Origin: Vibrio rhizosphaerae
GTDB taxonomy: Bacteria; Pseudomonadota; Gammaproteobacteria; Enterobacterales; Vibrionaceae
Reading direction: 5' to 3'
NCBI RefSeq assembly: GCF_024347095.1
Contig: NZ_AP024903.1
Span: 806,001-870,000 of the forward strand
Length of the DNA stretch: 64,000 nt
Both the position numbers and the translations under genes were made by a program. This document shows, piece after piece, positions 47,397 to 64,000 of this stretch. Under the pieces are notes generated by a model. The model searched no databases and had not been told where the DNA came from. It saw only the letters and a program-made list of their open reading frames with translations. The stretch's first letter is position 1; each line of letters begins with the position of its first letter.

Positions 47397-47750
47397 TTAC
47401 TTTTTATTGTTGTAGAGTTTGTCAGGCGTATAGGCATCTTGTGCCGATATTATCTCCATGAGCTCTTCTAAATCATCGTCTGGGTTATAGTCTGGGTCGT
47501 CCAAAGGTTCGATGAGTTCAATGATTTCGAAAGTAAATGCTTCTTCGCCTAAACGGTTCCAGTCCGCCTGAATTGCTTTATTTCGATGGCTACCAAGTTT
47601 AAGTTCGGTCTTATGTCGGTTCAGTCTCGCTTGAACGTCTTTACAGGTTCCTATCAGTGATAGACGATCTTCTTGATTGTAAACCCGATAAGCACCCATC
47701 GGTCGTGGTGTTTCTTTATACTGTTTCTTTAGTTTTTTTCTTCTATCCAT
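47397..47750 (-). CDS. GIY-YIG nuclease-like protein
   Basis: About 117 residues from the ATG at 47750 (a GTG at 47762 is an alternative). The first strands read MGAYRVYNQEDRLSLIGTCKDVQARLNRH, a degenerate GIY-YIG block in which GIY becomes GAY and YIG becomes LIG. The catalytic Arg region (ARLNRHKTELKLGSH) and the downstream Glu (FEIIELIE) are present. Small single-domain members of this family are common and their DNA or RNA target is unknown. The last 25 residues are acidic. Co-transcribed with the hypothetical gene that follows. Confidence 0.7.
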   Translation of the reverse strand: MDRRKKLKKQYKETPRPMGAYRVYNQEDRLSLIGTCKDVQARLNRHKTELKLGSHRNKAIQADWNRLGEEAFTFEIIELIEPLDDPDYNPDDDLEELMEIISAQDAYTPDKLYNNKK

Positions 47751-48598
47751 CGGTTTATCCACATTAATTATTCGAAAATATATGACAGCTTGTTAAACAG
47801 TTTGGTTTAGGTTGTTGATATTGAGGTTCTTTGAACCTAATTGATCGACCCTAAAGTAGATATTTAACGAAACTCATTCTCTCTAATGAAAGTATCTCCG
47901 TCAATGACGAAGTGCATGTTCCTGATACTGTAACTATTCCTAGTCTCCTTTCATTTTTATAGCGACTTGTTTTGTATTTTTAGATGTTTCCTGAAAATAT
48001 CAATCTTTATATAAATAATACTGTCATTAATTGGGGTGGCGGTGAGTCTATTAAATGATATTTTATTTGGTAAAATTATCATTTAATAATGAGTGCAAGT
48101 AACATATACATAATAAATATACATAATAAATATACATCATGTATAAAAAGTTATTTTTGATATATAGAGAAAGGTTATTTCTATATTATCCTTGATATTC
48201 AATATATTAGGATATTCATTTTTTGATTGATGTATGTCACATAAATGGTTTTTTATAATGTTATAAATAAAATTAAAGGTTTATTTGTAAAAAATGGGTG
48301 ACAATAAATAAAAACTAGTTAATATAATGTACATATTAATGATTATTTGTTGTTTTTTTTGTTTTCTGATTAATGAGGTGTATCTTTTGACCTGTTGAGG
48401 ATGTTGTTATTTATTAAATAGCTCTCTGTTAAATAACCCTCTGCTTTATTGGGTGGTAAAAATAGAGTGTGAATTTCTATTCTCGTTTTCTGAAATTATT
48501 ATGATTTCTATGTTTATTCGTAGATTCAAATAATATTAAAATGATCGTAAATATATATTACGATTTTCGCCTATGGAATATTAAGGAGTGGCCTAGAT
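47751..48598. other. Long AT-rich region in front of the PKS operon
   Basis: About 850 bp with no credible gene on either strand. It contains two exact tandem copies of ATACATAATAAAT (48106-48118 and 48119-48131) and a partial third. TTGACC (48387-48392) with TTTATT 17 bp later (48410-48415) is a possible promoter for the operon, about 185 bp upstream of the first start codon. The length and composition suit a regulatory region bound by H-NS-like proteins, which is inference. Confidence 0.5.
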
Positions 48599-50176
48599 AT
48601 GGGACACCAACAAACGGATGTTTTAATTTTAGGTGGCGGACTGGCAGGATTAACCTTAGCACGTCAGTTGCGAATGGAAATGCCTGAGCTGGATATTATA
48701 GTTCTTGAGCGAAGTAAAAGGCCGGCTCCTGAGGCTTGTTATAAGGTTGGTGAATCGAGTGTAGAAGTTGCTGCGCATTATTTTGCAGAACGTCTAGAGT
48801 TGAGAGAACACATCGATAATGAGCAACTGCCAAAGCTTGGGTTGAGATACTTCTTTCCTCAGGGCGAGAATCGAGATGTCACGAAACGCTTTGAAATTGG
48901 ACCAAGCGAGTTTCCAGTTACTCCTAGTTATCAGTTGGATCGAGGCCGCTTTGAAAATTATCTGCATGAATTGAATGTGGATAATGGCATTGAAATTCAT
49001 ACTAAAGCAAAAGTTCAACAGGTAACGCTAAATTCTGAAGAAATGCATGAAGTAAAATATATGCATGGATCCGAGGTGAAGTCTATTCAGAGTAAGTGGT
49101 TGGTTGATGCCACCGGACGTAATCAGTTAATTAAGCGTAAACTGAATTTGGAGAAAGATAGCAACCTTCATAATGATGCCGTCTGGTTTAGATTGGACGC
49201 AGAGGTTGATATTGGCAGTTTAAGTGATGTTCCCCAATGGCAGGATCGTGCTGTTGAACCGCGTCGTTTAAGTACGAATCACTTCATGGGACCAGGTTAT
49301 TGGTTATGGTTTATTCCTTTGGGTTCAGGTGCAACCAGTGTTGGGATTGTCTTTGATAATCAAATGCATAATTTCAAAGATATGAACAACTTTGAGAAAG
49401 CTTTAAATTGGTTGTATGAACATGAACCGCAATGTGCAGAGTTAGTTGAAAGTTACCGAAGCCAAGTGATGGATTTTATTGGATATCGGAATTATTCATA
49501 TAGTTGTAAGCAAGTATTTTCAGCGGATCGCTGGTGTATTACTGGTGAATCCGGAGTATTTATCGATCCTTTCTATTCTCCTGGTAGTGATTTTATTGCT
49601 TATAGCAACGATTTTGTGACTGAACTAATTGTACAAGACTTCAAAGGTAAAGATATTAGACAATTGGCATCTTCTTTTAACGATACCTTTATGAAGTTAG
49701 CTGATGTGGTCTCAATGCTATATGAAGGCTTATATCCAAAATTTGGGAATGGTTTTGTGATGAAGCAGAAAATTCTTTGGGATAGCGTTATTTATCTCGG
49801 TGTCACATGTCTGTTGTACTTTAATCGAAAGTTTACTGATCCTGATTTTTTAGCGTTGGTTGATTCAGAGTTAGCACATTACAACTATTTATTACGTTCT
49901 GTAGCTGAACACTTTAAACGTCAACCCATTACTCATGATGTACATCTCGATGGCGAATATGTCGATTTAACTAAAACCTTTTTGTTTGGTAGAAATCTGA
50001 ACGAAGAGTTGACCATTGAATATAAAGATGACGACGCGCTGATTGAAAAACTAAGAGAGAATATCGAACTGCTCGATAAAATATCCGTAAGTATTTTCAA
50101 TAATGTTGATATTGCGTGGAATTTTCAACCTAAAAAATTAGCAGATACAAGTGAAGAGCAAGTCGTAAACAGCTAG
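48599..50176 (+). CDS. Flavin-dependent halogenase-like protein
   Basis: 525 residues. The FAD-binding motif is GGGLAGLTLA (about 12-21). VGESSVEVAAHYF follows, as in the VGE(S/A) motif of halogenases. W235-L-W-F-I-P240 matches the WxWxIP motif that distinguishes flavin-dependent halogenases from monooxygenases. GESGVFIDPFYSPGSD corresponds to the GDAxxFIDPFFSSG block. A C-terminal domain of about 130 residues follows. The enzyme would use FADH2 and O2 to chlorinate or brominate, or alternatively hydroxylate, a substrate. AAGGAGTGG precedes the ATG. First gene of the rightward operon; a partner flavin reductase is not in the window. Confidence 0.75.
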   Translation: MGHQQTDVLILGGGLAGLTLARQLRMEMPELDIIVLERSKRPAPEACYKVGESSVEVAAHYFAERLELREHIDNEQLPKLGLRYFFPQGENRDVTKRFEIGPSEFPVTPSYQLDRGRFENYLHELNVDNGIEIHTKAKVQQVTLNSEEMHEVKYMHGSEVKSIQSKWLVDATGRNQLIKRKLNLEKDSNLHNDAVWFRLDAEVDIGSLSDVPQWQDRAVEPRRLSTNHFMGPGYWLWFIPLGSGATSVGIVFDNQMHNFKDMNNFEKALNWLYEHEPQCAELVESYRSQVMDFIGYRNYSYSCKQVFSADRWCITGESGVFIDPFYSPGSDFIAYSNDFVTELIVQDFKGKDIRQLASSFNDTFMKLADVVSMLYEGLYPKFGNGFVMKQKILWDSVIYLGVTCLLYFNRKFTDPDFLALVDSELAHYNYLLRSVAEHFKRQPITHDVHLDGEYVDLTKTFLFGRNLNEELTIEYKDDDALIEKLRENIELLDKISVSIFNNVDIAWNFQPKKLADTSEEQVVNS

Positions 50177-50251
50177 GTTTTAATAACTCTGGAGCATTCA
50201 ATAGATACCGAATAAGTAAATCCAGAAATATCAAGAGTGGGAGAATTGGTT

Positions 50252-51187
50252 GTGTCACCATTTGAGCAGAATTTAGAAATTCGTAAAGCTGTGATTAAGG
50301 TAATGAAAGAAGGCGGGTATTACCAAAAAATCATGGATGGGGATTCTGAATTAGACCGTGTCAAAGAATTCTTAATTCGGATGGAGAAAGCCCAACACGG
50401 AGAACGTTTATATAAGCAGCATCCTACATTTTTACCGATTTTCCCAGGCCTCGATAATCAACCGATGCGCTCATCTAAAGGCGATCCTGTTGCTGACTAC
50501 TTACGTGAAGCAACACCAGCAATCAAAGAAGACGCGCTGCGTTTAAGAGATCGCACACTGTCTTTTACGGGGGGAATTGTGACAGATGGGGCATGGAATA
50601 TTTTCCCACTTTGGTACATGGGAGTTAATCTCCCGTTTATGTCTGCACACTGTCCCAACTTATCCCGAATTGCTGCCGAGATACCTCGTTGTGGCATGTT
50701 GCACCCATTTTCTGAAGCGCTATTGTCTTGGCAGGATCCTCACACCCATCTCGCTGCGCATTGTAGTGTTGATTCGTTGAGGCTGCGATATAGCGTTGGC
50801 ATTATTGTTGAGTCCGATTGTAGTCTACGTGTTGGTGAGGTAAGGAAGCAGTGGGAGACCGGAGAGTCAATCATATTCGAAGATTGTTTTGAACATGAAG
50901 CATGGAATGGGGATAAAAGTCGTTTAGTGTTCATCATTGATACTTGGCATCCAGACCTTACCGCCATTGAGTGTGAAGCCTTACTCGCAGGGTTTCGGAA
51001 GAAAGAAGTTCGCCATATCCTCTATGAGTACCGTATGTCGGAGGCGATGAGACCTTTCCTGCTGAACCGATTTGAAATAGAAGAAAAAGAGCCTTTGATT
51101 CAACAGTACTGGGAGCATGAAGGTGAATTATATGTTCCTAAGCCAAAAAATTGGGGGATATGGGGGACGACCCCTGTGTTTACCTGA
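50252..51187 (+). CDS. Aspartyl/asparaginyl beta-hydroxylase family protein
   Basis: About 311 residues from the GTG at 50252, which has GGGAG at good distance; the GTG at 50237 is also in frame. Residues about 160-250 match the Asp/Asn hydroxylase domain of Fe(II)/2-oxoglutarate oxygenases: the first metal His in AAHCSVDSLRLRYSVGII, then CSLRVGEVRKQWETGE, the second His in FEDCFEHEAWN and the 2-oxoglutarate Arg in DKSRLVFIIDTWHPDL. N-terminal 100 residues are not recognised. In biosynthetic clusters such enzymes hydroxylate carrier-bound substrates. It follows the halogenase gene by 75 bp. Confidence 0.8.
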   Translation: MSPFEQNLEIRKAVIKVMKEGGYYQKIMDGDSELDRVKEFLIRMEKAQHGERLYKQHPTFLPIFPGLDNQPMRSSKGDPVADYLREATPAIKEDALRLRDRTLSFTGGIVTDGAWNIFPLWYMGVNLPFMSAHCPNLSRIAAEIPRCGMLHPFSEALLSWQDPHTHLAAHCSVDSLRLRYSVGIIVESDCSLRVGEVRKQWETGESIIFEDCFEHEAWNGDKSRLVFIIDTWHPDLTAIECEALLAGFRKKEVRHILYEYRMSEAMRPFLLNRFEIEEKEPLIQQYWEHEGELYVPKPKNWGIWGTTPVFT

Positions 51188-51297
51188 GTCCCTGAACGGG
51201 CTCATATAGAGCCCTAATGACATTCGCGGTATTTTCATCACAAGGAATAATGAGAATAGCCGCTTAAAACAATCATCATGGATAAGGATATATCATT

Positions 51298-52077
51298 TTG
51301 TTCGGCGTCGATTTTGAACAATGCTTTAGCTCGCCAGTAAAGGAGCGTACTAATGCAAATGTGATATTGTTTTGTTTTCCCTACGCTGGTGCGGGGGTCT
51401 CTTCTTATCACACACTTTGTAATTTATTACCTTTGGAAGTCATTCCATTTGTTGCCAGATTACCCGGTCGTGAAACCACACATCAACAACCGCCATTTAC
51501 TGAAATGTCAGATATTGTTTCGTACTTGTCAAAGGCAATTCGCCCTGCTTTAGGAAAGTCGTCAATTTTTTTTTGGGGTCACAGTATGGGGGCTCTTCTT
51601 GCGTTTGAAATCGCGAGAATTGTGCAGAAAGATTACACCTTAGATGGTTTGATTGTTTCAGGACATGTCGCTCCTCATTTACCTGTTAAGCCAAAGCCTG
51701 TTTCAATTAAGGAAATGGATGACGCTCAGTTCCTTGAAATTGTCAGAAGCTACGGTGGTATGCCTGATGCCATTCTCCAGAATCCCGATATCCTCCAATT
51801 AGTTTTACCGCAAATCAGAGCTGATTTAACCGCGCTAGAGGGATATCAATTCGTTCAGGGAGAAAAACTTGAGAGTGATATTTTTTGTATTAATGGTCAG
51901 TCCGATCATATGGTCGATCCACATAACGTGATGCTTTGGCAAGAATTAACGTCAGCGAAATTCTCCAGTCAATGGCTACCAGGGTCGCATTTCTTCATTA
52001 ATGAACAACGCCATGGGGTGGTGAAGCGCATTAGCAATATCATTCGTCATCAACTTGTTCAAATAGATATCATCTAA
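51298..52077 (+). CDS. Type II thioesterase (alpha/beta hydrolase)
   Basis: 259 residues starting at TTG, with AAGGA upstream; no ATG or GTG is in frame nearby. The catalytic Ser is about residue 96 in FFWGHSMGALLAFE, with the Asp region GQSDHMVDP and the His in LPGSHFFINEQ. The N-terminus LFCFPYAGAGVSSYHTLCNLLP is typical of TEII proteins. It removes aberrant or stalled acyl chains from carrier proteins. It ends 16 bp before the first PKS gene. Confidence 0.9.
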   Translation: MFGVDFEQCFSSPVKERTNANVILFCFPYAGAGVSSYHTLCNLLPLEVIPFVARLPGRETTHQQPPFTEMSDIVSYLSKAIRPALGKSSIFFWGHSMGALLAFEIARIVQKDYTLDGLIVSGHVAPHLPVKPKPVSIKEMDDAQFLEIVRSYGGMPDAILQNPDILQLVLPQIRADLTALEGYQFVQGEKLESDIFCINGQSDHMVDPHNVMLWQELTSAKFSSQWLPGSHFFINEQRHGVVKRISNIIRHQLVQIDII

Positions 52078-52093
52078 CAAAAGGACACATAGC

Positions 52094-55000
52094 ATGCTGG
52101 AAGTCGTTAATACCTACCTTCATGGCTACGCAGCAATTCCGATGCTAATGGTTTGTCAAGAGACAGGTATCATGACTGCGTTGGAAAAGGGACCTGTAAG
52201 CGTACAGGAAATAACAAAAGAGCTGTCGGCCAACATTGGTTATAGCCGACTGATTTTTCGAACCCTGAATGCACTGGGTTATGTCACAACGACAGACCGG
52301 GAAAAATATACACTGAGTCCGGATACAAATCATGACTGGCGTCTACCTGACACAATGATTGAAGTTTATAAAATCGATTTCTATGATTATTTTTTGAATG
52401 GTACTCATAAAAACAAGGTGAGAGCTTGGCTCGATTTGTCAGTCGATGATTGGGGTAAAACTGATAAAGAAACGCAGCAGCTCATGGATGGCGTGATCAT
52501 GGTGCCGTTTTTATTGGCGCTCGCTGAATTAGGACTCGGTCAGGACGAAAACATCCAGTCCAGTTTACTTGAACAGTATATTCACGAAAGTATTTGGTCT
52601 GATGTACAGTATTTTCTGACTCGGAAAAACCTGTTAGAAGAAGACAAACTAGTCCTTAATCAGGCTGGTTGGCACTTATGTAATCGTGCGTTGACCATGG
52701 CTACTATGGTGTCATACCGGCCAATGTTATTGAATTTTAAAGAACTACTTTGTGGTGACCCAAAGCAAGTGTTTGACCGTGATGAATTGGGACATGAAGT
52801 CCATGTCGATCGAAGCCTTAATGTGATTGGGAGCGGCTTCCAACATGGTAAGTATTTTTTCGATTTGGCAGAGTTTATCGTTGAGATTTTCAATCGAACA
52901 CCTGTCTCAGAGCAACCTAATTATATCGTCGATATGGGGTGTGGCGATGGTGCGTTGTTAAAAACACTTTATGAGGAAATCACTAAAAATAGTTTAAGAG
53001 GACAGTATCTAGAACAATACCCTCTGCTTTTGGTTGGTGCTGATTATAACGAGAAATCCTTGCTGGAATCAGCAAAGACATTGGATGGATTCCCTCATCT
53101 GTTGTTACCTGGGGATATTGGTAAGCCTCAGGATTTGATGACAGATCTACGGTCATACGGCATTACAGATGTTGATCAAATTATACATGTACGTTCATTT
53201 TTAGATCATGATAGACCCATCAATATTGAGGCAGCACCGACAGACATGATCCCCAGAGATGATCATATTCTTGTCAATGGTAGAGGTGATTGGATTGACT
53301 CTGATACGGTGTTCAAAGACCTCTGTGAGTATTTGACACGGTGGTCAAGTATTTTGGGGAAACATGGACTAATTCTGCTCGAAGTTTTTTCTTTACCCAT
53401 TAGCTTAACGCGCGAATATTTTAATCAGACAGAGAGTTTCCATTTCGATTTCTATCACGCTATGTCCGGACAAGTTTTAGTCGATGCTGGAATGTTCCAT
53501 CAAGCACTCGCTTGTGCAGGTTTGTATCCTAACCGAGAGACATTGTCGAGATATCCCAAAACAACACCTTTTTCTCGTATTGTATTGCAGCAGCTCTTGC
53601 CTAAGCAGGTCATTGTAAGGCCTTTTGTCTTAGATGATATGCCGGCTGTGCTCGCCATTGATCGGGCTTGTTGGCCTGAGCACATGAGACTTTCAACAAC
53701 CGAGATTGAGCGACGTCATCGCACCTTTCCTAAAGGTCAACTCGTCGTGGAATATGAAGGGCGTGTTGTTAGTGTACTTTATTCTCAACGCATTGACGAA
53801 ATCGAGCCGATATTTTCTCTGGGTTATGCAAATTATTTGAATGCTCATAATAATGATGGTCGATATTGGCAACTCTTGGGGCTTAGTTCAGATCCTGATT
53901 ATCAATTTTTGTCGCTGGGGGATCATCTTTTAGAGCATACGCTTGATTTAGCGTCACTCACCCCGAAAGTCGAAGCAGTGTATGGGGTAACACGGTGCGT
54001 GGCATATGCTCAACAATCTGTGCCATTGGAAGAATACATTTTTAAGAAAGATGCTCAGGGTTATCCAATTGAACCGTTATTGCGCTTTCATTTTAGCCAT
54101 GGGGCTTCGATAGAGGGTTTAGTGCCTGAGACACGTCCAGAGGATGAAGAGAATGAAGGTGCAGGGGTTCTGATCCGCTATGACCTGAGCAAACGTTTTC
54201 AAAGACCAAATCAAACTCAACCGAGAGCAACAAGAGATATAGAGCGGGCAATTACTATCGTGTCAGATTGTATTCGCCAGATAATGAAAACACCAAGTGA
54301 TTTTCGAGATGATTTGCCGTTAAAGGAGCTAGGGTTGGATTCCATGGGATTGATGGAACTCCGTCTTTTACTTAATCGTGCATTTGGTATTGAGTTTGAA
54401 CCTGCGTATTTCTTCAATTATCCAACGGCAGTCGCGATCGCTGACTACATCGATAAATTAAACAAATCTTACGTACAGCCTGAAGCAGAGCTGAGTCATG
54501 CATCGCTTGTGGGACGACAGGCAGTGCCTAACCGCGTGTCTGTATCTGATGTCGGACGCTCTGACTCCGAAGTTCAATCGTCGCAAGAGACTGACGTTGC
54601 CATTGTTGGCATGTCATTACGTTTCCCTCAAGGGATTGAAACACTTGAGGAATTCTGGTCGGTCTTAACACAAGGAGAGTGCGTAATTAGTGAGCGTCCG
54701 GAGACCCGATGGCGAGAATTTCAATCCGAATTGGAGACATTAGATACACGTTGGCAACACATCCATCGTGGCGGTTTTTTGAAAGACATAGATAAGTTTG
54801 ATGCGGAATTTTTTCATATTACCCCTGCGGAAGCCGCATCCTTAGACCCACAACAACGTATCTTGCTAGAGCTTGCTTGGGAAGCTTTTGAAAATGCCGG
54901 TATGGATGTTGAACAATTTGCAAGTCACCCAGTCGGTATTTTTTTAGGCGCTTATACACAAGATTATCAAACGCTGACCTTACGACAAGGTGTTGATGCG

Positions 55001-58000
55001 GTGGATGCCTATTTTGGTGGTAGTAATGCTTTATCGACAGCAGCAGGACGGTTGGCGTACTTTTTTGACTTCCGTGGGCCAACGCTCACACTTGATACCG
55101 CATGTTCTTCTTCGAGTAGTGCGATTTATACAGCATGTCAGAATCTTCTTGAAGGCAACGCAGAAATAGCACTGGCAGGCGCGATCAATACGATGATTTC
55201 CCCAAATTTGAGTTTAGCTTATGCAAAAGCAGGAATGTTGTCTGTCGATGGGCTTTGTAAAACGTTTGATGCTGAGGCCAATGGTTATGTGCGAAGTGAA
55301 GGTGGGGCTTTCCTACTGTTAAAAAGAAAAGCCGATGCAATCCGGGATGGGGATTTTATTCACGCAGTGATTAAATCGGCCGCATTGATGCAGGATGGAC
55401 GCACCAATGGTCTTACGGCACCGAATGGCCTCGCTCAGGAAGATGTGATTCGTCGAGCTGTGCAGTTGTCCGGATACAAAGCTGAGGATGTCAGTTATAT
55501 CGAAGCGCATGGGACGGGGACTTATCTAGGGGATCCTGTAGAGATGCAGGCACTCAGACAGGTTTTCTGTGATGGTACGGCACGTCGGAACACATTAAAA
55601 GTTGGTTCAGTGAAAACCAATTTAGGCCATACAGAAGCGGCTTCAGGGATGGCTGGTATCATCAAAGTCGCTTTATCGATGCAACATCAATGGATTCCAC
55701 CACATCTGCATCTTCAAAATATGAATACATTGATGAATATTGCGCAGGCTGACATTGATGTACCGACGCAAGGTGAGTTCTGGGAAGTGACCGAAGGCCA
55801 ACCAAGATTGGCTGGGATTAGCTCTTTTGGTTTCAGCGGTAGTAACACTCATATTGTACTAGAAGAGTTTCACATGCCTGACTCTGAGCAGTGGCATGGA
55901 CGTAGCCCATTACCCGCTGTTATCTCTGCCAAATCGATTCAATCGTTACGGCAGAATATCCTTGCTTTGCTGACGTATATCGATCAGCACGGGGCAACAC
56001 TCAATCTTGCTGCACTATCGAAAACACTGACACAAGGACGTACGCAGCATTGTTACCGAATCTCTTTTCCTTTTGATTCGCTTGAGACACTGAAAACGTC
56101 TCTGCAAGCGCAGTTAAAAAATTTATCCTCAGAGAATCCGCCTGTTACTTCATCGGTTCAACCCAGAATCGCATTTATGTTTACTGGTCAGGGGGCTCAG
56201 TATAAGGGGATGGCTTCTCGCCTGGATCGTTTTAGTCCGGTTTTCCATCAACACCTGTCAGAGTGTGCCGCTTTCGTTCAGACGTATGGTGAATTTGATT
56301 TATTTGAGCTTCTTTGGGGGAATGATGAGACTCTGATCCACCAACCTCGCTATACTCAAGTCGCGTTATTTTGTATCGAATATAGTCTCTCTGAAATGTT
56401 ACGGGAGTCAGGGATTGAAGCTGAAGCGGTTCTTGGACATAGCGTCGGAGAGTATGCGGCAGCTTGTTATACCAAAGTCATTAGCCTCGAAACCGCGATC
56501 CAATTGCTCTTTTATCGCGGTAAGTTGATGGATGAACAAACTGCAATGGGTAAGATGGTTGCAGTTCTTGCACCATTGAGCGATGTTGAGTGCTTAGTTG
56601 AAGGCTATGAACTTGTCTCTATTGCAGCGAAGAATGGGCCTTCAAATCAGGTAATATCGGGGGATCCAGAACAGATCGAGCGCATTGTTCAAAATGCTGA
56701 ACAACTGAAGATGAAAACATTTCCACTCACCGTGGAAAGAGCTTTCCATTCTCCGCTGATGGCCCCTATTCTCGAACCATTCAAAGCGATAGCGGAACCA
56801 CTGACTTATCAGGCACCACAGTCAGATCTTTTTTCAAACTTAACTGGTGATCGATATACCGAGGTGATGGATAGCCAATATTGGACTGATCATATCAGCT
56901 CACCCGTGAACTTTGAGCAATCTGTACGAAGTCTTCTGAAGCATGGGGTCGATATGGTGGTCGAAATTGGCCCCCGTCCGATTCTGACGAATATGGGTTT
57001 ACTGATTGATGCAGATAAAAATACGCTTTGGCTTTCTACTCTTGTCGATGCTGAGAACCATAATCTAGCGAGTCTCTTTACTCGGTTGAGTCAGTCTGGT
57101 GTAGACATTGATTGGCGTTTTTATCCTCATGAAAGCGTGACGAGACTCTCTGACGTACCACTTTATCAGTTTGATCGAAGCAAATACTGGCTCACTGAGT
57201 CTTCGAAAGAGCACGCTCTTACATCTGTCTCCGTCGATGATAGCGCAGAACAGGATACAAGGCGCGATATAGACAAAGAGACCGAATCACAACCGCAGTC
57301 TGCTACGCCTAACTTAGTTGGTATCTTTCCGAACCGTATCGAACCAAAGCGTGACCGTGATATATGGGCGCATGCGATTGGCAGCGAGAGTCTATTTCCT
57401 GCCAGTGGTTACATTGGGTTGGCGTTAGAGGCTGGGATGTGTTGTTTGAAGCGAGACGGTTACGTAGAGCTTAGAGATATGCATCTCGAACAGATGTTGA
57501 CACTGTCTGATGAACAAGAAACCTATATTCAAGTGAGAGTTTCAGAAGGTGATTCGGGCAATATGCTTTCTATACAATTAGAAGCATGGCAGGCGGATCA
57601 GAAGGCTCCCCGATCCTTGTATGCAAGAACAGCAATGAAAGCACTGACGTTTGGTCCGGAGGATGCTTGGGAAAAGGAAGTCACAACTGTTGATCTGCCA
57701 TTAACCAGTGACGCTGTCATGCAGGGAGAAACGTTCTATAAACGAATTTCAGCATTAGGCTATGCCTATCGGCCTCCGTTCCAAGGGATTCGGAATGTTC
57801 GGCGCGCTGGAAATACTTTGGTCACGACACTCAGATTTTCTAATACAACGCCAAATGCAGGCTATGCAGCGACGCCATGGAGTCTGGATGGGTGTTTCCA
57901 AACCATTCTCGCTGTCGTCATCGATGATTTAGAAGCTAACCATGACCAACTTTTACTCCCAGTCATTATTGAGCAGTTTACTTGGTTGTCGTCACTTCCG

Positions 58001-60052
58001 TCTGAAGTGAATGTCGCATGTGTGTGTCAGTCGACGACCCGTGGCATATCAGCCAACATGTCAATTTATGACATTGCAGGTCAATTATTAGTTAATATTG
58101 TTGGGTTGAACTGCGTGTGGGTGAATCGCCAAAGTCTAGGTTTGCAAGCCATTCCGAGCAGTACACCGGAGATTTATCGTCCCGATTGGATGGCATCTGA
58201 GGTATCAGCTGAGCTTTTATCACTTGTCTCACTCAAAGAACAAATCCCTGCTTGGTTGGTACTTACTGATGATAATGGTCAGGGGCAGGCAATTATCGAT
58301 GTGCTGACCTCGGCAGGGATGCGAGTTGAAGTGCTGCAATGGGAGAAGGCTCAGAAGCCATCCATATTTACCAGACAGTTAATGAATTTCTCGACATCAC
58401 AAGAGACACCATTTGGACTCGTTCATAGTTGGTGGTTAACTCAACCGACTAATGGTGCTCATGCTAGGGGGCGGTATGAACTTGATTTAGCTGTGGCTCA
58501 GTTTGTAGCCTCAACAGATACAGAGCGTTTATCGCGGGCTATTTTCCTAACATCACATGCCTATCCGGTTTTGAAAACTGACGAGATGGATGTTGACCAA
58601 GGTGCGGGGCTTTGGGGGTTGGTGAATACACTACGAGCCGAAGTCGCTACGCATGAACTCACCCTTGTTGATGTTGCACCGACACAAACTGAGGAAGAAG
58701 CACGTCGTCAGGCTGAGCAAATTTTGCTGACGTCTAATGCGACACTCAAGGCTACAGAAGCCACGGATTGGCCTGAACATTTTGCGTTACGACAGGGCGC
58801 TTTATTTCAACGTGTGCTTCAACCAGTAACAAGCTCGACTGAATCTATCAGAATCTCGGGTGATGCCAGCTATATTGTCACCGGTGGGCTCGGGGGAATT
58901 GGGCAATACATTACTACATTTCTTCATAAAGAAGGCGCAGGGCAGATTGTACTGTTGGGACGGTCATTTCCTGAAGAATTACCCATTTGGGTGCAACACC
59001 TTAATCAAAAACGTCAAGCGATTATTCTGCTTCGCTGTGATGTGACAGAGCCGCACGATATTACCAATGTGATGAAGCAGTTAGAGCAAGGTCCCACGGT
59101 CCGAGGACTGATTCACGCAGCCGGAGTTGTGGAAGATGCGTTGCTCGTCAATCAGACTCAGGAAATGCTTTCTCGGGTTTATGCCCCTAAGGTTGAGGGG
59201 ACGAAACATCTTGTGGATGCGTTTGCAACAGAGTCTCTTGATTTCGTTTGGTTATTCTCTTCTATCGTCGGTATTTTGGGGGCTGTAGGGCAGGCGAATT
59301 ATGCAACAGCCAATGCGGTGATGGACAGTTATGCGCATTATCTACGGCAACAAGGTATTAGGGCAACATCGATTAACTGGGGCCCCTGGAAAGAGACGGG
59401 AATGCTGTCTGATTTGTCTCAGATGGCGCTAGAGCGTGCGAGTTATTTTATGACGGGGATTGATCCGAGCGCTTGTAGTGATGATTTGTTTACTGCTTTG
59501 CTCAATTCGGATGAAGCACAATGTTGTGTTGTTCAGTGGCATATTGAACACATCAATCAGGAAAAATATCTGCCGCAAATTTTGTCTTCATTGCGTACCC
59601 AACCGATACAAGAGCAGGTCTCTGTCTCGTTGGCATCGGTTTTAGAAGGGGCATTAGGTGAAGAACAGGTGTTACGTACCCGTCGTTTTGTGGCAGAAAA
59701 AATCGCCCAATTAACGGGTCTATCTCCCGACGTGATTGAACCGTCCAAACCGTTCTCTGATTATGGTGTTACTTCCATTGTTAGTGTTGAACTCAGTTCA
59801 ATGTTAACCACCAGTGTCGGTGCAACTTTTGCGACGACCATGATGTTTGACTATCCAACGCTCAGTTTGTTGGCGGAATACGTATTGGAACGGAGTGCGT
59901 TGAGAGACCAGAGCAATGATAGTGTTCCCATCAATGATGACAGTTTGTCCCATGAATCTTTCTTTGAGATAGACAAGGATTTAGATGAAATCGAGAATCT
60001 TGATGACGAACTACTTACTGCTTTATTGAGTGAGGAGATAGATGATGAGTGA
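52094..60052 (+). CDS. Type I PKS: methyltransferase-GNAT-ACP loading module plus KS-AT-DH-KR-ACP
   Basis: 2652 residues. 1-490: AprA/GphF-like methyltransferase region with a winged-helix N-terminus and the SAM motif DMGCGDG at 280-286. 505-665: GNAT-like domain (RPFVLDDMPAVLAIDRACWP). ACP1 at about 715-785 with Ser750. KS at 835-1260 with Cys1004, His1139 and His1179. AT at about 1358-1650 with Ser1450 in GHSVGE and AFHS, which indicates malonyl-CoA. DH at about 1750-2010 with His1760 and Asp1932 in DGCFQ; its H-x3-G-x4-P motif has Ser for Gly. Reductive KR at about 2256-2435 (TGGLGGIG, Ser2390, Tyr2403, Asp2348, predicted B-type). ACP2 at about 2530-2602 with Ser2561. An acidic tail (2603-2652) is a likely docking segment. 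The loading module would form a methylated, decarboxylated short acyl starter. Confidence 0.9.
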   Translation: MLEVVNTYLHGYAAIPMLMVCQETGIMTALEKGPVSVQEITKELSANIGYSRLIFRTLNALGYVTTTDREKYTLSPDTNHDWRLPDTMIEVYKIDFYDYFLNGTHKNKVRAWLDLSVDDWGKTDKETQQLMDGVIMVPFLLALAELGLGQDENIQSSLLEQYIHESIWSDVQYFLTRKNLLEEDKLVLNQAGWHLCNRALTMATMVSYRPMLLNFKELLCGDPKQVFDRDELGHEVHVDRSLNVIGSGFQHGKYFFDLAEFIVEIFNRTPVSEQPNYIVDMGCGDGALLKTLYEEITKNSLRGQYLEQYPLLLVGADYNEKSLLESAKTLDGFPHLLLPGDIGKPQDLMTDLRSYGITDVDQIIHVRSFLDHDRPINIEAAPTDMIPRDDHILVNGRGDWIDSDTVFKDLCEYLTRWSSILGKHGLILLEVFSLPISLTREYFNQTESFHFDFYHAMSGQVLVDAGMFHQALACAGLYPNRETLSRYPKTTPFSRIVLQQLLPKQVIVRPFVLDDMPAVLAIDRACWPEHMRLSTTEIERRHRTFPKGQLVVEYEGRVVSVLYSQRIDEIEPIFSLGYANYLNAHNNDGRYWQLLGLSSDPDYQFLSLGDHLLEHTLDLASLTPKVEAVYGVTRCVAYAQQSVPLEEYIFKKDAQGYPIEPLLRFHFSHGASIEGLVPETRPEDEENEGAGVLIRYDLSKRFQRPNQTQPRATRDIERAITIVSDCIRQIMKTPSDFRDDLPLKELGLDSMGLMELRLLLNRAFGIEFEPAYFFNYPTAVAIADYIDKLNKSYVQPEAELSHASLVGRQAVPNRVSVSDVGRSDSEVQSSQETDVAIVGMSLRFPQGIETLEEFWSVLTQGECVISERPETRWREFQSELETLDTRWQHIHRGGFLKDIDKFDAEFFHITPAEAASLDPQQRILLELAWEAFENAGMDVEQFASHPVGIFLGAYTQDYQTLTLRQGVDAVDAYFGGSNALSTAAGRLAYFFDFRGPTLTLDTACSSSSSAIYTACQNLLEGNAEIALAGAINTMISPNLSLAYAKAGMLSVDGLCKTFDAEANGYVRSEGGAFLLLKRKADAIRDGDFIHAVIKSAALMQDGRTNGLTAPNGLAQEDVIRRAVQLSGYKAEDVSYIEAHGTGTYLGDPVEMQALRQVFCDGTARRNTLKVGSVKTNLGHTEAASGMAGIIKVALSMQHQWIPPHLHLQNMNTLMNIAQADIDVPTQGEFWEVTEGQPRLAGISSFGFSGSNTHIVLEEFHMPDSEQWHGRSPLPAVISAKSIQSLRQNILALLTYIDQHGATLNLAALSKTLTQGRTQHCYRISFPFDSLETLKTSLQAQLKNLSSENPPVTSSVQPRIAFMFTGQGAQYKGMASRLDRFSPVFHQHLSECAAFVQTYGEFDLFELLWGNDETLIHQPRYTQVALFCIEYSLSEMLRESGIEAEAVLGHSVGEYAAACYTKVISLETAIQLLFYRGKLMDEQTAMGKMVAVLAPLSDVECLVEGYELVSIAAKNGPSNQVISGDPEQIERIVQNAEQLKMKTFPLTVERAFHSPLMAPILEPFKAIAEPLTYQAPQSDLFSNLTGDRYTEVMDSQYWTDHISSPVNFEQSVRSLLKHGVDMVVEIGPRPILTNMGLLIDADKNTLWLSTLVDAENHNLASLFTRLSQSGVDIDWRFYPHESVTRLSDVPLYQFDRSKYWLTESSKEHALTSVSVDDSAEQDTRRDIDKETESQPQSATPNLVGIFPNRIEPKRDRDIWAHAIGSESLFPASGYIGLALEAGMCCLKRDGYVELRDMHLEQMLTLSDEQETYIQVRVSEGDSGNMLSIQLEAWQADQKAPRSLYARTAMKALTFGPEDAWEKEVTTVDLPLTSDAVMQGETFYKRISALGYAYRPPFQGIRNVRRAGNTLVTTLRFSNTTPNAGYAATPWSLDGCFQTILAVVIDDLEANHDQLLLPVIIEQFTWLSSLPSEVNVACVCQSTTRGISANMSIYDIAGQLLVNIVGLNCVWVNRQSLGLQAIPSSTPEIYRPDWMASEVSAELLSLVSLKEQIPAWLVLTDDNGQGQAIIDVLTSAGMRVEVLQWEKAQKPSIFTRQLMNFSTSQETPFGLVHSWWLTQPTNGAHARGRYELDLAVAQFVASTDTERLSRAIFLTSHAYPVLKTDEMDVDQGAGLWGLVNTLRAEVATHELTLVDVAPTQTEEEARRQAEQILLTSNATLKATEATDWPEHFALRQGALFQRVLQPVTSSTESIRISGDASYIVTGGLGGIGQYITTFLHKEGAGQIVLLGRSFPEELPIWVQHLNQKRQAIILLRCDVTEPHDITNVMKQLEQGPTVRGLIHAAGVVEDALLVNQTQEMLSRVYAPKVEGTKHLVDAFATESLDFVWLFSSIVGILGAVGQANYATANAVMDSYAHYLRQQGIRATSINWGPWKETGMLSDLSQMALERASYFMTGIDPSACSDDLFTALLNSDEAQCCVVQWHIEHINQEKYLPQILSSLRTQPIQEQVSVSLASVLEGALGEEQVLRTRRFVAEKIAQLTGLSPDVIEPSKPFSDYGVTSIVSVELSSMLTTSVGATFATTMMFDYPTLSLLAEYVLERSALRDQSNDSVPINDDSLSHESFFEIDKDLDEIENLDDELLTALLSEEIDDE

Positions 60053-63000
60053 ATCCAGTTCGTGGAAAGGGAGTTACCTAAAAAGACTGAATCAGTTGTC
60101 AAAAAATCAGTTGTTAGCTCTGGCACTTCGGCAGAGAGAACAACTACTTGATGTCAATCAGCAGGTTATGCAACCGGATGACACAGTTGCGATAGTTGGT
60201 ATTGGATGTCGATTTCCTGGCGGTGTGGTGGACACCGATAGCTATTGGAAACTCTTGTGTTCATCGGAAAGTGCAATCACTCAGATGACTGATGAACGAT
60301 GGCACATGCAGGGGATTTATGATCCCAATCCTGAGGTGGCTGGGAAAATTCATACACGTTCTGTCGGTTTGTTGGATCAGGTGGATAAGTTTGATGCGAG
60401 CTTCTTTTCTATTACGCCGCGTGAAGCTGAATCTATGGATCCACAGCAACGACTTTTGTTAGAGGTGACATGGGAAGCCATTGAAAATAGTGGTCATGCC
60501 TGTTCAGAATTTGAAGGAAAATCGGTTGGTTTGTTCATCGGGATGATGAATAAAGATTATCTTCACTTGAATGCGCCAGACATGATGGGTGTCAATGCAA
60601 AGCATTCCCCTTATTACGCATCTGGTGAAGCATTTAGTATTGGTGCTGGTCGGTTAGCATACATTCTAGGACTTCGCGGGCCGTGTATGACGTTGGATAC
60701 GGCGTGTTCTTCTTCTCTAGTGGGGGTGCATCTGGCGTGTCAAAGCTTGCTCAAGGATGAATGTGATTATGCAATCGCTGGTGGTAGTTCACTTATCCTT
60801 TCTCCAGAAGCGTCTATCGTCAGTTCTAATGCTCGTATGTTATCGCCAACAGGTCAATGCTGGACCTTTGATGAGAAAGCAGATGGTTATGTGCGCAGTG
60901 AAGGGTGTGCCGTTGTCGCACTCAAACGTTTGTCTGATGCCCTGGCAGATGGTGATCCAGTGGTGGCCACAATTGCAGCTACAGCTGTCAATCATAATGG
61001 GCGGAGTCAGGGATTAACTGCACCTAGTTCAACGGCACAAGCTGAGTTGATGCAAACTGCCCTCAAAAAAGCGCGGATTCAACCATCGCAAGTTCGTTTC
61101 ATTGAGGCGCATGGGACCGGTACGCCATTGGGTGATCCGATTGAGATGAATTCAATCCAGTCTGTTTATGGTCAGGAGCGGAGTGAAGATAATTCATTGA
61201 AAATTGGATCAGTGAAAGCATTGATTGGACATACCGAGGCGAGTGCGGGTGTTGCGGGGCTTATTAAACTGGCTTTATGTGTGTCAAAAAACAGAATCAT
61301 TCCACAGCGTAATTTCACTCGTTTAAATCCTCATATCCGATTACTGGATGGCGTAGAAATCGCGACAGAAACACAGTCATTTTCCCCTTCAGAATCCGAG
61401 TCTGAACCATTCCAATTGCACTATGGCGCTGTGAATTCTTTTGGTTTCAGTGGATCAAATGCGCACGCAATTGTGAGCAATGTACAGCTCACATCACCAA
61501 TAGTGACATGGCGAAGTCCACAACTGTTAACCATTTCCGCCGAAACTCCCAAAGCGCTGTTGGATTTGATGCTGCGTTATCGTGATTATATTTCCGATGA
61601 GAGCCTAGATTTACAGGCGTTAGCCTATACCAGTCAAGTGGGACGAGATCATTTCCCGGTACGGATCGCTTTGGATGGAGAGGCGCTAAGTACGCTAAGA
61701 GAATCTTTAGATAGGGCGATTTCCAGCTTTTCTCATGATAGATATGCGCCCAAAGTCGATCATGATGGTATTGTGTTGATTTTGAGTGATTTAGGGGAAG
61801 ATGCACAGAGACTACAACAGAAATTTTCTAAATCTAGCTCAGTTTTTGCTCAGCATTTCAAAACAATATTTGAAGCATCGTTTGCTGATACCCACGTTGA
61901 TTTACACGGTCTAATTGATTTAGATAAATATGCGCTAGGTAAAGAAGAAGCTTCTTATCTTGTGCTATGTGCCCTCTGCCAAACATTACGGACAGCGGGT
62001 GTTGCATTTACTGCGATTACTGGGACTGATTTGTGTAGTAAATTGGCTGCTGCCAGTGCTGTTGGCATGATTCAGCATCAGGATGGTTTGCGTTATCTCA
62101 GAGTATGTCTGCACAAAGAAGCAATGATAGGTTGGCAACTTGGCATCCCATCGGTTTCTCTGATTGATATATGGCATGGTGGGAACTGTTCAGCACTTTA
62201 TCAGGACATCGAAAGCTTCAGGGGTTGGTTAGAAGAGCCAAATCAAGGAACGCTGTTAAATAGCGGCGTAGATAGAAAAACGCTGTTTCTCAGTGTTACG
62301 GATGGTTTTCAAACAGCAGAAGGCTCATCAGTGCTTCCCCTATTGGGCGAGCATGAGGATGCAAAAGATTGGGACACTATTTGGGCTACCTTGTATGAAG
62401 CGGGTCTAAAACTTCATTGGGAAGGGCTATATAGTGGTACTCGTCCCCGACGTCTCGTGCTGCCCAATTATGTTTTTCAACGTCGCCATTATTGGCCTGA
62501 GAATGCCAAAACGAAACAATTACATGAAGTCAGTCCTGAAGATTGCCATCGATTTAAGGTGTTATGGCAAGAGGAAACAGTAACGCTGGCAGCCGTGTCT
62601 GACATTAAACCGTGTGTTATTCTGATTGAAGGGCCGATAGATGACTTACCGATGGAGAACTTACCATCAGAGGTAACGTTGGGGGTTCTGCCCAAAGGGT
62701 GGCAAGAAAGAGCTGTGATCGACACGGTATTGACTGAATACCATCTTGATCGTTCCACGCCTGTAGAGCTACTCGTCTGGTTTAGACCTCATGATAGCTT
62801 TTCTACGGGATGGCATAGTGACAGTCAGTCCCATGAAACCATCGTGACCGCGGTTGAACAACGTGCTAAAGCGTTATTAAACCTGACACAGGCGCTTCTA
62901 GAACGCACAAATTATAGTCAGTTCCGGTTTGGGGTTGTTACCGAAGGGGTTGAAAGTATTTCTGAGCGGACTGCAGTGAATGTGGTTGATGGGCTGGTCA

Positions 63001-64000
63001 ATGGATTTATACAGACGTTGTGCATGGAACAACCGCAGTTGCGTCCAAGGTGTATCGATCTGGATCCTAATAGCTTAGCGGCCGATAAATTCGCTCAGAT
63101 TGTGACTGTATTATACTCGAAGGATGATGAAAATCATTTGGCATTTCGTCAGGGACGCAGATATATTCATCGCTTGGCAAAAGCTGACCGAGTGCTCTCA
63201 AAATCGGTGACCGTACGTCATGATCGAGCCTACTTAATTACAGGGGGATTGGGTGGCATCGGGCTCTCGGTAGCGAGATGGTTATCCCGTGCCGGGGCTG
63301 GTCAAATATTGCTTGTGTCACGTCGAGGAAGTGAAGCGCCCGATGTCGCAGAGAGATTGGCGACGCTCAAACGGGAAAGAATGTCCGTGACACTGGTTCA
63401 GGCTGATGTGCAAGATTATGATGCCTTACGTGGTGCCGTTGAATCGTCAGCCAATTTTCCCTTAGCTGGTTTTATTCATAGTGCTGGTCAACTAGCCGAT
63501 GCATCATTACAGAATCTGACTCATACACAATTTCAACAAGTTTTTCAGTCAAAGGTTGTAGGGGCTTTGAATCTACATCGTCTCTCGCAAGAGATGGTGT
63601 CTGGCACTGATGTGGATTTATTCCTTTTATTTTCATCGATAGCCAGTTTGGTAGGGTCGGCAGGGCAGGCCAACTATACCAGTGCGAATGGGTTTACCGC
63701 TGCATTGGGGCGTTCGCGTCGTGCCGTCGGATTGCCCGCTACGGTCATACATTGGGGACCCTGGTCAGATGTTGGGATGGCAAGTGATGAACGATTAAAC
63801 CATAAGATCGAGCGCTCTGGTTTGGTTCTAATTGACCCCGATTTAGCGTTGTCCTCTATGCTAGATGCGTTGACCGAGCATCAGACAGAGTCAGTCATTG
63901 CTCAATTTAATTGGCCGCGTATCAATGCTTATTTGGCGGAACGAGTGCCACTGCCTCTATTATCTCAATTCACACAAACGACGCTTGAGGCTTCGCAGTC
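60045..64000 (+). CDS. Second type I PKS, KS-degenerate AT-KR, continuing beyond the window
   Basis: At least 1318 codons; no stop before the window end. The ATG at 60045 overlaps the upstream PKS stop by 8 bp, so the two are coupled. 1-45: helical docking segment (LKRLNQLSKNQLLALALRQR). KS at 48-475 with Cys221, His356 and His396 intact. About 490-805: an AT-derived region in which GHSxGE is replaced by GTDLCSK (Asp662 for the catalytic Ser) and the GQGxQ motif is lost. It ends at the normal post-AT linker (NYVFQRRHYWPE, about 807-818). About 825-1060: structural KR half. KR at 1062-1230 with TGGLGGIG and FSSIASLVGSAGQANY. No DH. An ACP is expected beyond 64000. Confidence 0.88.
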   Translation, partial: MSESSSWKGSYLKRLNQLSKNQLLALALRQREQLLDVNQQVMQPDDTVAIVGIGCRFPGGVVDTDSYWKLLCSSESAITQMTDERWHMQGIYDPNPEVAGKIHTRSVGLLDQVDKFDASFFSITPREAESMDPQQRLLLEVTWEAIENSGHACSEFEGKSVGLFIGMMNKDYLHLNAPDMMGVNAKHSPYYASGEAFSIGAGRLAYILGLRGPCMTLDTACSSSLVGVHLACQSLLKDECDYAIAGGSSLILSPEASIVSSNARMLSPTGQCWTFDEKADGYVRSEGCAVVALKRLSDALADGDPVVATIAATAVNHNGRSQGLTAPSSTAQAELMQTALKKARIQPSQVRFIEAHGTGTPLGDPIEMNSIQSVYGQERSEDNSLKIGSVKALIGHTEASAGVAGLIKLALCVSKNRIIPQRNFTRLNPHIRLLDGVEIATETQSFSPSESESEPFQLHYGAVNSFGFSGSNAHAIVSNVQLTSPIVTWRSPQLLTISAETPKALLDLMLRYRDYISDESLDLQALAYTSQVGRDHFPVRIALDGEALSTLRESLDRAISSFSHDRYAPKVDHDGIVLILSDLGEDAQRLQQKFSKSSSVFAQHFKTIFEASFADTHVDLHGLIDLDKYALGKEEASYLVLCALCQTLRTAGVAFTAITGTDLCSKLAAASAVGMIQHQDGLRYLRVCLHKEAMIGWQLGIPSVSLIDIWHGGNCSALYQDIESFRGWLEEPNQGTLLNSGVDRKTLFLSVTDGFQTAEGSSVLPLLGEHEDAKDWDTIWATLYEAGLKLHWEGLYSGTRPRRLVLPNYVFQRRHYWPENAKTKQLHEVSPEDCHRFKVLWQEETVTLAAVSDIKPCVILIEGPIDDLPMENLPSEVTLGVLPKGWQERAVIDTVLTEYHLDRSTPVELLVWFRPHDSFSTGWHSDSQSHETIVTAVEQRAKALLNLTQALLERTNYSQFRFGVVTEGVESISERTAVNVVDGLVNGFIQTLCMEQPQLRPRCIDLDPNSLAADKFAQIVTVLYSKDDENHLAFRQGRRYIHRLAKADRVLSKSVTVRHDRAYLITGGLGGIGLSVARWLSRAGAGQILLVSRRGSEAPDVAERLATLKRERMSVTLVQADVQDYDALRGAVESSANFPLAGFIHSAGQLADASLQNLTHTQFQQVFQSKVVGALNLHRLSQEMVSGTDVDLFLLFSSIASLVGSAGQANYTSANGFTAALGRSRRAVGLPATVIHWGPWSDVGMASDERLNHKIERSGLVLIDPDLALSSMLDALTEHQTESVIAQFNWPRINAYLAERVPLPLLSQFTQTTLEASQ

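What the first reader, a model, noticed from the sequence alone, without database searches (positions are those of the whole stretch)
48599..64000. Unfamiliar PKS operon with halogenase, Asp/Asn hydroxylase, TEII and a GNAT-type loading module
Seen: five tightly spaced rightward genes with clear motifs for a WxWxIP flavin halogenase-like protein, an Fe(II)/2OG hydroxylase, a type II thioesterase and two PKS proteins. Known: methyltransferase-GNAT-ACP loading modules occur in apratoxin, saxitoxin and gephyronic acid pathways, mostly from cyanobacteria and myxobacteria. I know of no named vibrio product with this combination. Inference: a short branched or propionyl-type starter, a reduced polyketide, and halogen or hydroxyl tailoring.
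Basis: partly seen in the sequence, partly recalled or inferred. Interest (0 to 1): 0.9.

Follow-up and report, generated by a model that had tools for sequence, protein, structure and literature searches.

The report
Vibrio cluster for an enacyloxin-type antibiotic
The genes are real, but they are the front end of a cluster for an antibiotic of the known enacyloxin family (inhibitors of bacterial protein synthesis), found here in what is probably a Vibrio and missing three finishing genes that the compared Burkholderia and Aquabacterium clusters have, so it probably makes a new, simpler relative.

Summary
Observation confirmed: halogenase-like flavoprotein, Asp/Asn-hydroxylase fold, type II thioesterase and two PKS proteins, the first with an AprA-type methyltransferase-GNAT-ACP loading module. 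The reading "unfamiliar cluster" does not hold. Followed past the window end (to C1:920509; window = C1:806001-870000), this is an enacyloxin-type cluster. All 20 cluster genes have homologues in Burkholderia ubonensis LMG 20358 and Aquabacterium sp. A7-Y. The 11 ketosynthases match one to one in order (62-77% to counterparts, at most 51.4% to any other). The release condensation protein matches PDB 6CGO, Bamb_5915 of enacyloxin IIa, over its full length (E 5.5e-160). The terminal KS lacks its HGTGT histidine, and the carrier tail motif is shared. New, modestly: the probable Vibrio host, an inverted six-gene block, tandem ACPs, and the absence of a carbamoyltransferase, a PQQ dehydrogenase and a cupin/JmjC protein that both relatives carry; MATE and the next gene abut. 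I predict a chlorinated polyenyl ester without carbamate and 15-ketone. No product was measured. New variant of a known kind.

The parts
45393..46775 (+). MATE-family exporter of the cluster (likely product export and self-protection)
   Evidence: TIGR00797 188.9 bits, above cut-off 147.4; homologues beside the clusters of B. ubonensis (52%) and Aquabacterium (56%)
46779..47375 (-). 198-aa cluster-conserved protein of unknown function; abuts MATE where both relatives carry three extra genes
   Evidence: no Pfam or NCBIfam hit at E<=0.001; 55/56% to homologues in both relatives
47397..47762 (-). 121-aa GIY-YIG-like small protein, cluster-associated
   Evidence: PF01541 22.8 bits against cut-off 22.6; 56/58% to homologues in both relatives
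48599..50176 (+). flavin-dependent halogenase-like protein, presumed chlorinase of the pathway
   Evidence: PF04820; 68/70% to cluster homologues; GGGLAG, W(L/V)WFIP and FIDPFYSPG motifs in all three
50237..51187 (+). Asp/Asn beta-hydroxylase-fold Fe(II)/2OG enzyme, presumed hydroxylase
   Evidence: PF05118 102 bits; 71/73% to cluster homologues; both iron-ligand histidines (recalled from AspH) lie in conserved THLxAH and CFEHEAW
51298..52077 (+). type II thioesterase (counterpart of bamb_5926)
   Evidence: PF00975 122 bits; 47/51%; bamb_5926 named as the enacyloxin TEII
52094..60052 (+). PKS1: MT-GNAT-ACP loading module plus KS-AT-DH-KR-ACP (counterpart of Bamb_5925 by position, inferred)
52796..53590 (+). 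PKS1 AprA-type loading methyltransferase
   Evidence: PF23525 322 bits; DMGCGDG and FDFYHA.S.Q motifs conserved in all three clusters
53606..54193 (+). PKS1 GNAT-fold decarboxylase/loading domain
   Evidence: aligned to CurA 2ree; GphF 6mfc also hit; W, T, H and R positions recalled from CurA are present
54245..54463 (+). PKS1 loading ACP
   Evidence: GLDSM
54581..55873 (+). PKS1 KS (elongating)
   Evidence: DTACSS, EAHGTGT, GHT present
56159..57013 (+). PKS1 AT, one of only two full AT domains in the cluster
   Evidence: GHSVGE
57350..58147 (+). PKS1 DH
58844..59425 (+). PKS1 KR
59675..59896 (+). PKS1 second ACP
60042..64000 (+). PKS2 (cut by window end; full 2229 aa to equivalent 66731): KS-[no AT]-KR-ACP-KS
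60171..61487 (+). PKS2 first KS
61776..62117 (+). possible AT relic without the catalytic Ser (approximate limits)
   Evidence: hhalign probability 86%, E 4.6e-6; GTD/GSD where GHSxG would be expected, by eye; AlphaFold model of 61719-62621 too poor to use
63204..63800 (+). PKS2 KR

Best explanation
This is the 5' end of an enacyloxin-type biosynthetic cluster (C1:851393-920509; window 45393 to about 114509 in extended coordinates) in a probable Vibrio. Malonyl on the loading ACP is methylated by the AprA-type MT and decarboxylated by the GNAT to a propionyl starter. Ten elongating KS on seven PKS proteins extend it with malonyl units; only two modules have a full AT of their own, so the others must be loaded by an AT acting in trans (those two, or FabD). 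Two cMT domains add two methyl branches. A terminal non-elongating KS hands the chain to a separate KS-like/PCP protein, whose C-terminal tail docks on the beta-hairpin domain of a free-standing condensation enzyme, which esterifies it with a shikimate-derived dihydroxycyclohexane carboxylic acid made by the adjacent dehydrogenases, dehydratase-like protein and CoA-transferase. The halogenase chlorinates; the AspH-fold enzyme hydroxylates; TEII edits; MATE exports. Because carbamoyltransferase, PQQ dehydrogenase and cupin/JmjC protein are missing, the product should be an enacyloxin congener lacking the carbamate and the ketone made by the quinoprotein, aimed at EF-Tu. Shown: gene and domain content, one-to-one homology, motif losses, gene absence. 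Inferred: every chemical step, product and target.
For: 20 of 20 cluster genes have a homologue in both B. ubonensis LMG 20358 and Aquabacterium A7-Y. 11 of 11 KS domains pair by position: 62-75% to B, 68-77% to A, against at most 51.4% to any non-equivalent KS. Same domain maps, full AT in the same two places, two cMT. Release C protein: 6CGO, 536 bits, residues 3-502 of 502; 6CGO is Bamb_5915. The B. ubonensis C protein gives 951 bits to 6CGO, which makes that cluster the enacyloxin reference here. A halogenase homologue, 68%, is a 53-member group named B. gladioli, a species reported to make enacyloxin IIa (passages). PCP matches 5mti, E 4.2e-27 (that 5mti is Bamb_5917 is recalled). Terminal KS EAAANGA in place of EAHGTGT, Cys kept. 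C-terminal YEEGFIV/YEEGFIR/YEEGIIL tails. Three tailoring genes present in both relatives, 66, 77 and 80% alike, not found here: PQQ 0 and cupin 0 matches at E<=1e-5 in the whole genome, carbamoyltransferase only a 39% paralogue on contig 2; no remnant in 80 kb around the cluster (best E 0.039, 18 residues).
Against: No product measured. The B. ambifaria cluster was not compared and its primary papers were not held; B. ubonensis stands in for it. The contig-2 carbamoyltransferase could act in trans. MT1 could methylate twice (isobutyryl starter): its YHA.S.Q motif, shared by B. ubonensis and Aquabacterium, is more like AprA than 7uci (that AprA dimethylates is recalled). The halogenase family is large (7120 of 7997 scored at E<=1e-40) and of the 120 listed most bear no specific name, so chlorination is inferred; its NCBIfam hits all lie far below the curated cut-offs among the 25 shown of 32. 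The KS-like/PCP protein is only 38%/30% alike. PKS1 and several other B. ubonensis matches are partial alignments (e.g. 1717 of 2652 residues). Both EF-Tu copies are identical with unchanged residues at four recalled resistance sites, so target-site self-resistance is not evident.
Confidence: 0.85

Rival explanations
1. The cluster makes enacyloxin IIa itself, with carbamoylation and oxidation supplied by genes elsewhere in the genome.
For: A carbamoyltransferase-family gene exists on contig 2 (match 496982-498016).
Against: It is only 39% alike over residues 140-573 of 604, no nearer than B. ubonensis's own non-cluster paralogues (39%, 37%); it sits beside a GDSL and an MBOAT gene. No match to the cluster PQQ dehydrogenase or cupin protein at E<=1e-5 anywhere in the genome.
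Confidence: 0.08
2. The cluster is decaying or silent and makes no finished product.
For: Tailoring genes lost; no LuxR-type regulator among the neighbouring genes that I examined (some small ORFs were not examined), whereas Bamb_5911 is a LuxR-type gene of the B. ambifaria cluster; the halogenase was found in no other genome of the order sampled (1 of 394, the own one).
Against: All seven PKS frames are open with lengths like their homologues; every one of the 11 KS has its Cys and the 10 elongating KS have both His; both full ATs have GHSxGE. The MATE/198-aa junction shows no gene debris by tblastn.
Confidence: 0.07
3. An unrelated new polyketide that only shares parts with enacyloxin.
For: No report of such a cluster in Vibrio was found in the searches made.
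Against: One-to-one order of 11 KS, with homologues of all release and cyclohexane-unit genes.
Confidence: 0.02

Closest known systems
Enacyloxin IIa cluster of Burkholderia ambifaria (gene numbers 5911, 5915, 5917, 5919/5920, 5924/5925 and 5926 seen, the rest recalled), represented here by B. ubonensis LMG 20358
   Same: 20 homologous genes; 11 KS one to one; full AT domains in the same two modules; MT-GNAT loading; terminal non-elongating KS, PCP with docking tail, and beta-hairpin-C release enzyme
   Different: Vibrio cluster lacks carbamoyltransferase, PQQ dehydrogenase and cupin/JmjC gene; six-gene block DSD-SDH-ADH-C-CoAT-KS/PCP inverted; tandem ACPs at end of PKS6; 44-71% protein identity (KS-like/PCP 38%)
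Homologous cluster of Aquabacterium sp. A7-Y (L020, L029-L032; product not known to me)
   Same: same gene set and module order, slightly closer to the Vibrio cluster in most genes
   Different: carries the three missing tailoring genes; PKS6 split into a lone KS and the rest; exporter block at the other end
AprA/GphF/CurA-type MT-GNAT loading modules (7uci, 6b39, 2ree, 6mfc)
   Same: same domains by sequence; recalled GNAT residues kept
   Different: feeds an enacyloxin-type assembly line; methylation extent unknown

Membership tests
enacyloxin-type assembly line and release system | MT-GNAT-ACP loading module followed by ten elongating KS on seven PKS proteins in the order of the B. ubonensis reference | tested here: met
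enacyloxin-type assembly line and release system | mixed AT supply (stated for enacyloxins in a review passage): full cis AT in only two modules, no discrete AT in the cluster | tested here: met
   a partial AT-like hit of 19-24 bits in PKS7 of all three clusters
enacyloxin-type assembly line and release system | terminal non-elongating KS, PCP with docking tail, free-standing beta-hairpin-docked C domain | tested here: met
   by sequence:
enacyloxin-type assembly line and release system | genes for the dihydroxycyclohexane carboxylic acid unit | tested here: met
   homologues of the SDH, DSD-like, ADH, CoA-transferase and OYE genes of both relatives present; their role in that unit is recalled and inferred, not tested
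enacyloxin-type assembly line and release system | flavin halogenase | tested here: met
   68/70% homologue; activity not tested
complete enacyloxin IIa cluster | carbamoyltransferase, PQQ dehydrogenase and cupin/JmjC gene in the cluster (as in both relatives) | tested here: not met
complete enacyloxin IIa cluster | enacyloxin IIa as product | not testable with these tools
   no metabolite data
AprA/GphF-type MT-GNAT loading module | AprA N-terminal, winged-helix and MT domains plus GNAT with its decarboxylase residues | tested here: met
   the residue list is partly recalled (Arg and Thr from a passage)
AprA/GphF-type MT-GNAT loading module | measured starter unit | not testable with these tools
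   needs purified protein and mass spectrometry

The most novel reading that the evidence does not exclude
A Vibrio lineage acquired the enacyloxin pathway and dropped, as one block, the carbamoylation and late oxidation steps, so that it makes a previously undescribed, carbamate-free, 15-hydroxy EF-Tu inhibitor: a natural test of which decorations of the molecule matter.
Probability: 0.55. Interest if true: 0.55.

Novelty: new variant of a known kind. Interest (0 to 1): 0.42.

Why it matters
Enacyloxin IIa is an EF-Tu antibiotic active on Gram-negative and Gram-positive bacteria (passages). A version in a Vibrio widens the hosts that I saw named for it (Burkholderia, Frateuria). The block loss predicts a specific new congener that mass spectrometry can confirm or reject at once, and a three-way comparison at mostly 45-75% identity shows which parts of an unusual mixed cis/trans-AT assembly line and its release system are kept (catalytic motifs, docking tail, possible AT relics).

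Tried and rejected
Rejected: an unfamiliar cluster. Rejected: self-resistance through a variant EF-Tu copy; two identical copies, four recalled resistance sites unchanged. Inconclusive: AlphaFold of the putative AT relic in PKS2, mean pLDDT 34.9, so no fold search was made. The relic claim rests on hhalign alone: 4 of 10 stretches without a full AT gave 76-96% probability (PKS2 first module, PKS2 second KS tail, PKS6 second module, PKS7 first module), one gave 25% (PKS6 first module, Aquabacterium left out) and five gave under 1%; the positive control gave 100%, but it holds sequences that are in the profile itself. Promoter scan: 15 found against 16.7 expected, uninformative. Insertion-site comparison dropped: in the 12 same-genus genomes examined the flanking PTS gene was found at 76-78% identity in six, on various contigs. 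Only 2 loci came from the genome-contig scan, which used two peptide patterns. The halogenase appeared in no genome but the own one at the set cut-offs among 196 relatives and 394 genomes of the order, samples that overlap.
Full report
Where it is. The window is C1:806001-870000 of a 4.56-Mb genome in two contigs, 3.51 and 1.05 Mb. Among the 120 listed relatives of the fructose PTS protein next to the cluster, the best named ones are Vibrio (V. fluvialis and V. furnissii, 81-82%); the one nearer hit (94%) is unnamed. I therefore take the host as a Vibrio, species unknown.

What is there. Residues 1-699 of PKS1 match solved methyltransferase-GNAT loading modules (7uci 521 bits over 1-699; AprA 6b39 396 bits over 2-569; CurA 2ree 128 bits and GphF 6mfc 113 bits for the GNAT part). 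The GNAT residues that I recall from CurA (W, T, H, R) are present, and the methyltransferase SAM and metal motifs are conserved in two further clusters. Arginine and threonine as the residues needed for GNAT decarboxylation are stated in a paper of which I read passages (PMC10100342).

Beyond the window. The operon continues as PKS2 (C1:866042-872731), PKS3 (872732-877966), PKS4 (877963-884112), PKS5 (884112-892964), PKS6 (892977-904637), PKS7 (904627-911967), an OYE-family reductase (911988-913109), a dehydroshikimate-dehydratase-like TIM barrel (913150-913980) and a shikimate dehydrogenase (913971-914876). On the other strand follow a zinc alcohol dehydrogenase (914997-916007), a condensation protein with a TubC_N docking domain (916049-917557), a family III CoA-transferase (917578-918807) and a KS-like/carrier protein (918836-920509). 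The genome has three acyltransferase (PF00698) matches at E<=0.001: PKS1, PKS5 and a 310-aa frame at C1:2245485-2246369 that I take for FabD.

Identification. The condensation protein matches 6CGO over residues 3-502 of 502, E 5.5e-160. A paper read in passages names 6CGO as Bamb_5915, an enacyloxin IIa chain-release enzyme, Bamb_5917 as its PCP partner and bamb_5926 as the TEII (PMC13324335); another names the PKS junctions Bamb_5925/5924 and 5920/5919 (PMC9113145). The PCP end of the KS-like protein matches 5mti, E 4.2e-27. Only 12 proteins, the query's own included, reached E<=1e-40 for the condensation protein among the 7994 candidates scored. A scan of genome contigs gave two loci, Aquabacterium sp. 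A7-Y and Burkholderia ubonensis LMG 20358. The latter's condensation protein scores 951 bits to 6CGO, so I use its cluster as the enacyloxin reference. The best named relatives of the halogenase include Shewanella sp. VB17 (75%), Aquabacterium (70%), B. gladioli (68%) and Janthinobacterium (63%); B. gladioli is reported to make enacyloxin IIa (passages of PMC8115902).

Comparison. Twenty of twenty genes (MATE, 198-aa, 121-aa, halogenase, AspH, TEII, seven PKS, OYE, DSD-like, SDH, ADH, C, CoA-transferase, KS-like/PCP) have homologues in both clusters. Identities to B. ubonensis / Aquabacterium: halogenase 68/70, AspH 71/73, TEII 47/51, PKS 44-55/49-58, OYE 71/74, DSD-like 60/63, SDH 54/54, ADH 58/61, C 50/54, CoA-transferase 69/68, KS-like/PCP 38/30. 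These are best local alignments; in several B. ubonensis PKS cases they cover only part of the protein. Domain maps agree module by module: 11 KS each, full AT only in PKS1 and PKS5, cMT in PKS4 and PKS6, with a partial AT-like hit of 19-24 bits in PKS7 of all three. Each KS is nearer its positional counterpart (62-77%) than any other (at most 51.4%). The last KS keeps Cys (DTMCSS) but has EAAANGA for EAHGTGT in the Vibrio and Aquabacterium, EAAANGT in B. ubonensis; all 10 other KS in each cluster keep HGTGT. The carrier protein tails read YEEGFIV, YEEGIIL and YEEGFIR, fitting a docking tail for the beta-hairpin domain.

Differences. (a) In both relatives, MATE is followed by a PQQ dehydrogenase, a cupin/JmjC protein and a carbamoyltransferase, then the 198-aa gene (Pfam was run on the Aquabacterium three). 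Here MATE ends at 46775 and the 198-aa gene begins at 46779. A whole-genome search found none of the first two at E<=1e-5 and for the third only a 39% paralogue on contig 2 next to GDSL and MBOAT genes; tblastn over 80 kb found no remnant (best E 0.039 over 18 residues). (b) The block DSD-SDH-ADH-C-CoAT-KS/PCP is inverted. (c) PKS6 ends in two ACPs, both with GMDSI. (d) B. ubonensis shows no KR in its last PKS6 module, and Aquabacterium has PKS6 split.

How it likely works. Loading: malonyl, methylation, decarboxylation to propionyl. With 10 elongations this gives C23 plus two methyls, which fits the enacyloxin acid as I recall it (not from any call). Modules without AT need one in trans; no further AT was found in the genome, so the two integrated ATs or FabD must serve, which is inference. 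Four of ten stretches tested look like AT relics by hhalign (its positive control contains profile members), with GHSxG changed by eye in the stretches inspected; a structure model was too poor to help. Release by double transfer (terminal KS to PCP to C domain) onto the dihydroxycyclohexane acid follows the published enacyloxin mechanism (titles and passages; the primary papers were not held). Without carbamoyltransferase and quinoprotein the free hydroxyls should remain; the roles of those two genes in enacyloxin are recalled, not tested.

Self-protection. Both tuf genes encode identical proteins with Q124, G316, Q329 and A375 unchanged (sites recalled). Export by MATE is the likelier protection, untested.

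Distribution and print. The halogenase homologue at E<=1e-100 was found in 1 of 196 relatives and at E<=1e-120 in 1 of 394 genomes of the order, the own genome both times; the samples overlap. Thirteen papers in the held library contain both 'enacyloxin' and 'Vibrio'. I saw passages of five (PMC3633348, PMC4307249, PMC4557003, PMC5872303, PMC10882806), and none of the passages shown links the two; the other eight I saw only in the listing. The listings of searches (several capped at 20 or fewer rows) show no such report either. Most subscription papers are not in that library, so this is not proof of absence.

Verdict. Observation confirmed; 'unfamiliar' refuted; a new variant of a known cluster with a testable predicted congener.

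Noticed in passing
window 61719-62621; equivalents in PKS2 second KS tail, PKS6 and PKS7: Possible decayed acyltransferase stretches after KS domains without AT (hhalign 76-96% in 4 of 10 stretches), on alignments of three lineages, as if cis ATs were lost before these clusters diverged.
   Followed up: partly
L012:11783-18562 (C1:921783-928562): Right of the cluster: HipA-like protein, HEPN/nucleotidyltransferase-like protein, Vsr endonuclease and a C5 cytosine methylase, a mobile-island-like neighbourhood.
   Followed up: no
window 47397-47762: Small GIY-YIG-like gene with homologues beside both other clusters; role unknown.
   Followed up: no
window 46779-47375: 198-aa protein without a Pfam or NCBIfam match but with homologues beside both other clusters; could be a resistance or regulatory factor.
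   Followed up: no
P0016 (Shewanella sp. VB17): Halogenase 75% identical to this one, in an organism not named among the 12 release C-domain proteins (most of those are unnamed): perhaps a related cluster with another ending.
   Followed up: no
L034:10868-12811 (C2:496868-498811): NodU/CmcH-type carbamoyltransferase beside GDSL and MBOAT genes on the second contig.
   Followed up: partly
window 48001-52000: GC falls to 38% around the halogenase and AspH genes, against 44-46% in the window's PKS part and 41-54% in the other 4-kb blocks.
   Followed up: no
L027:8034-17006 (B. ubonensis PKS6): The last module of PKS6 in B. ubonensis LMG 20358 shows no KR domain, unlike the other two clusters.
   Followed up: no
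C1:2863702-2864442 and C1:1741988-1743766: Further ketosynthase matches in large frames elsewhere in the genome (1041 and 800 aa), not examined.
   Followed up: no
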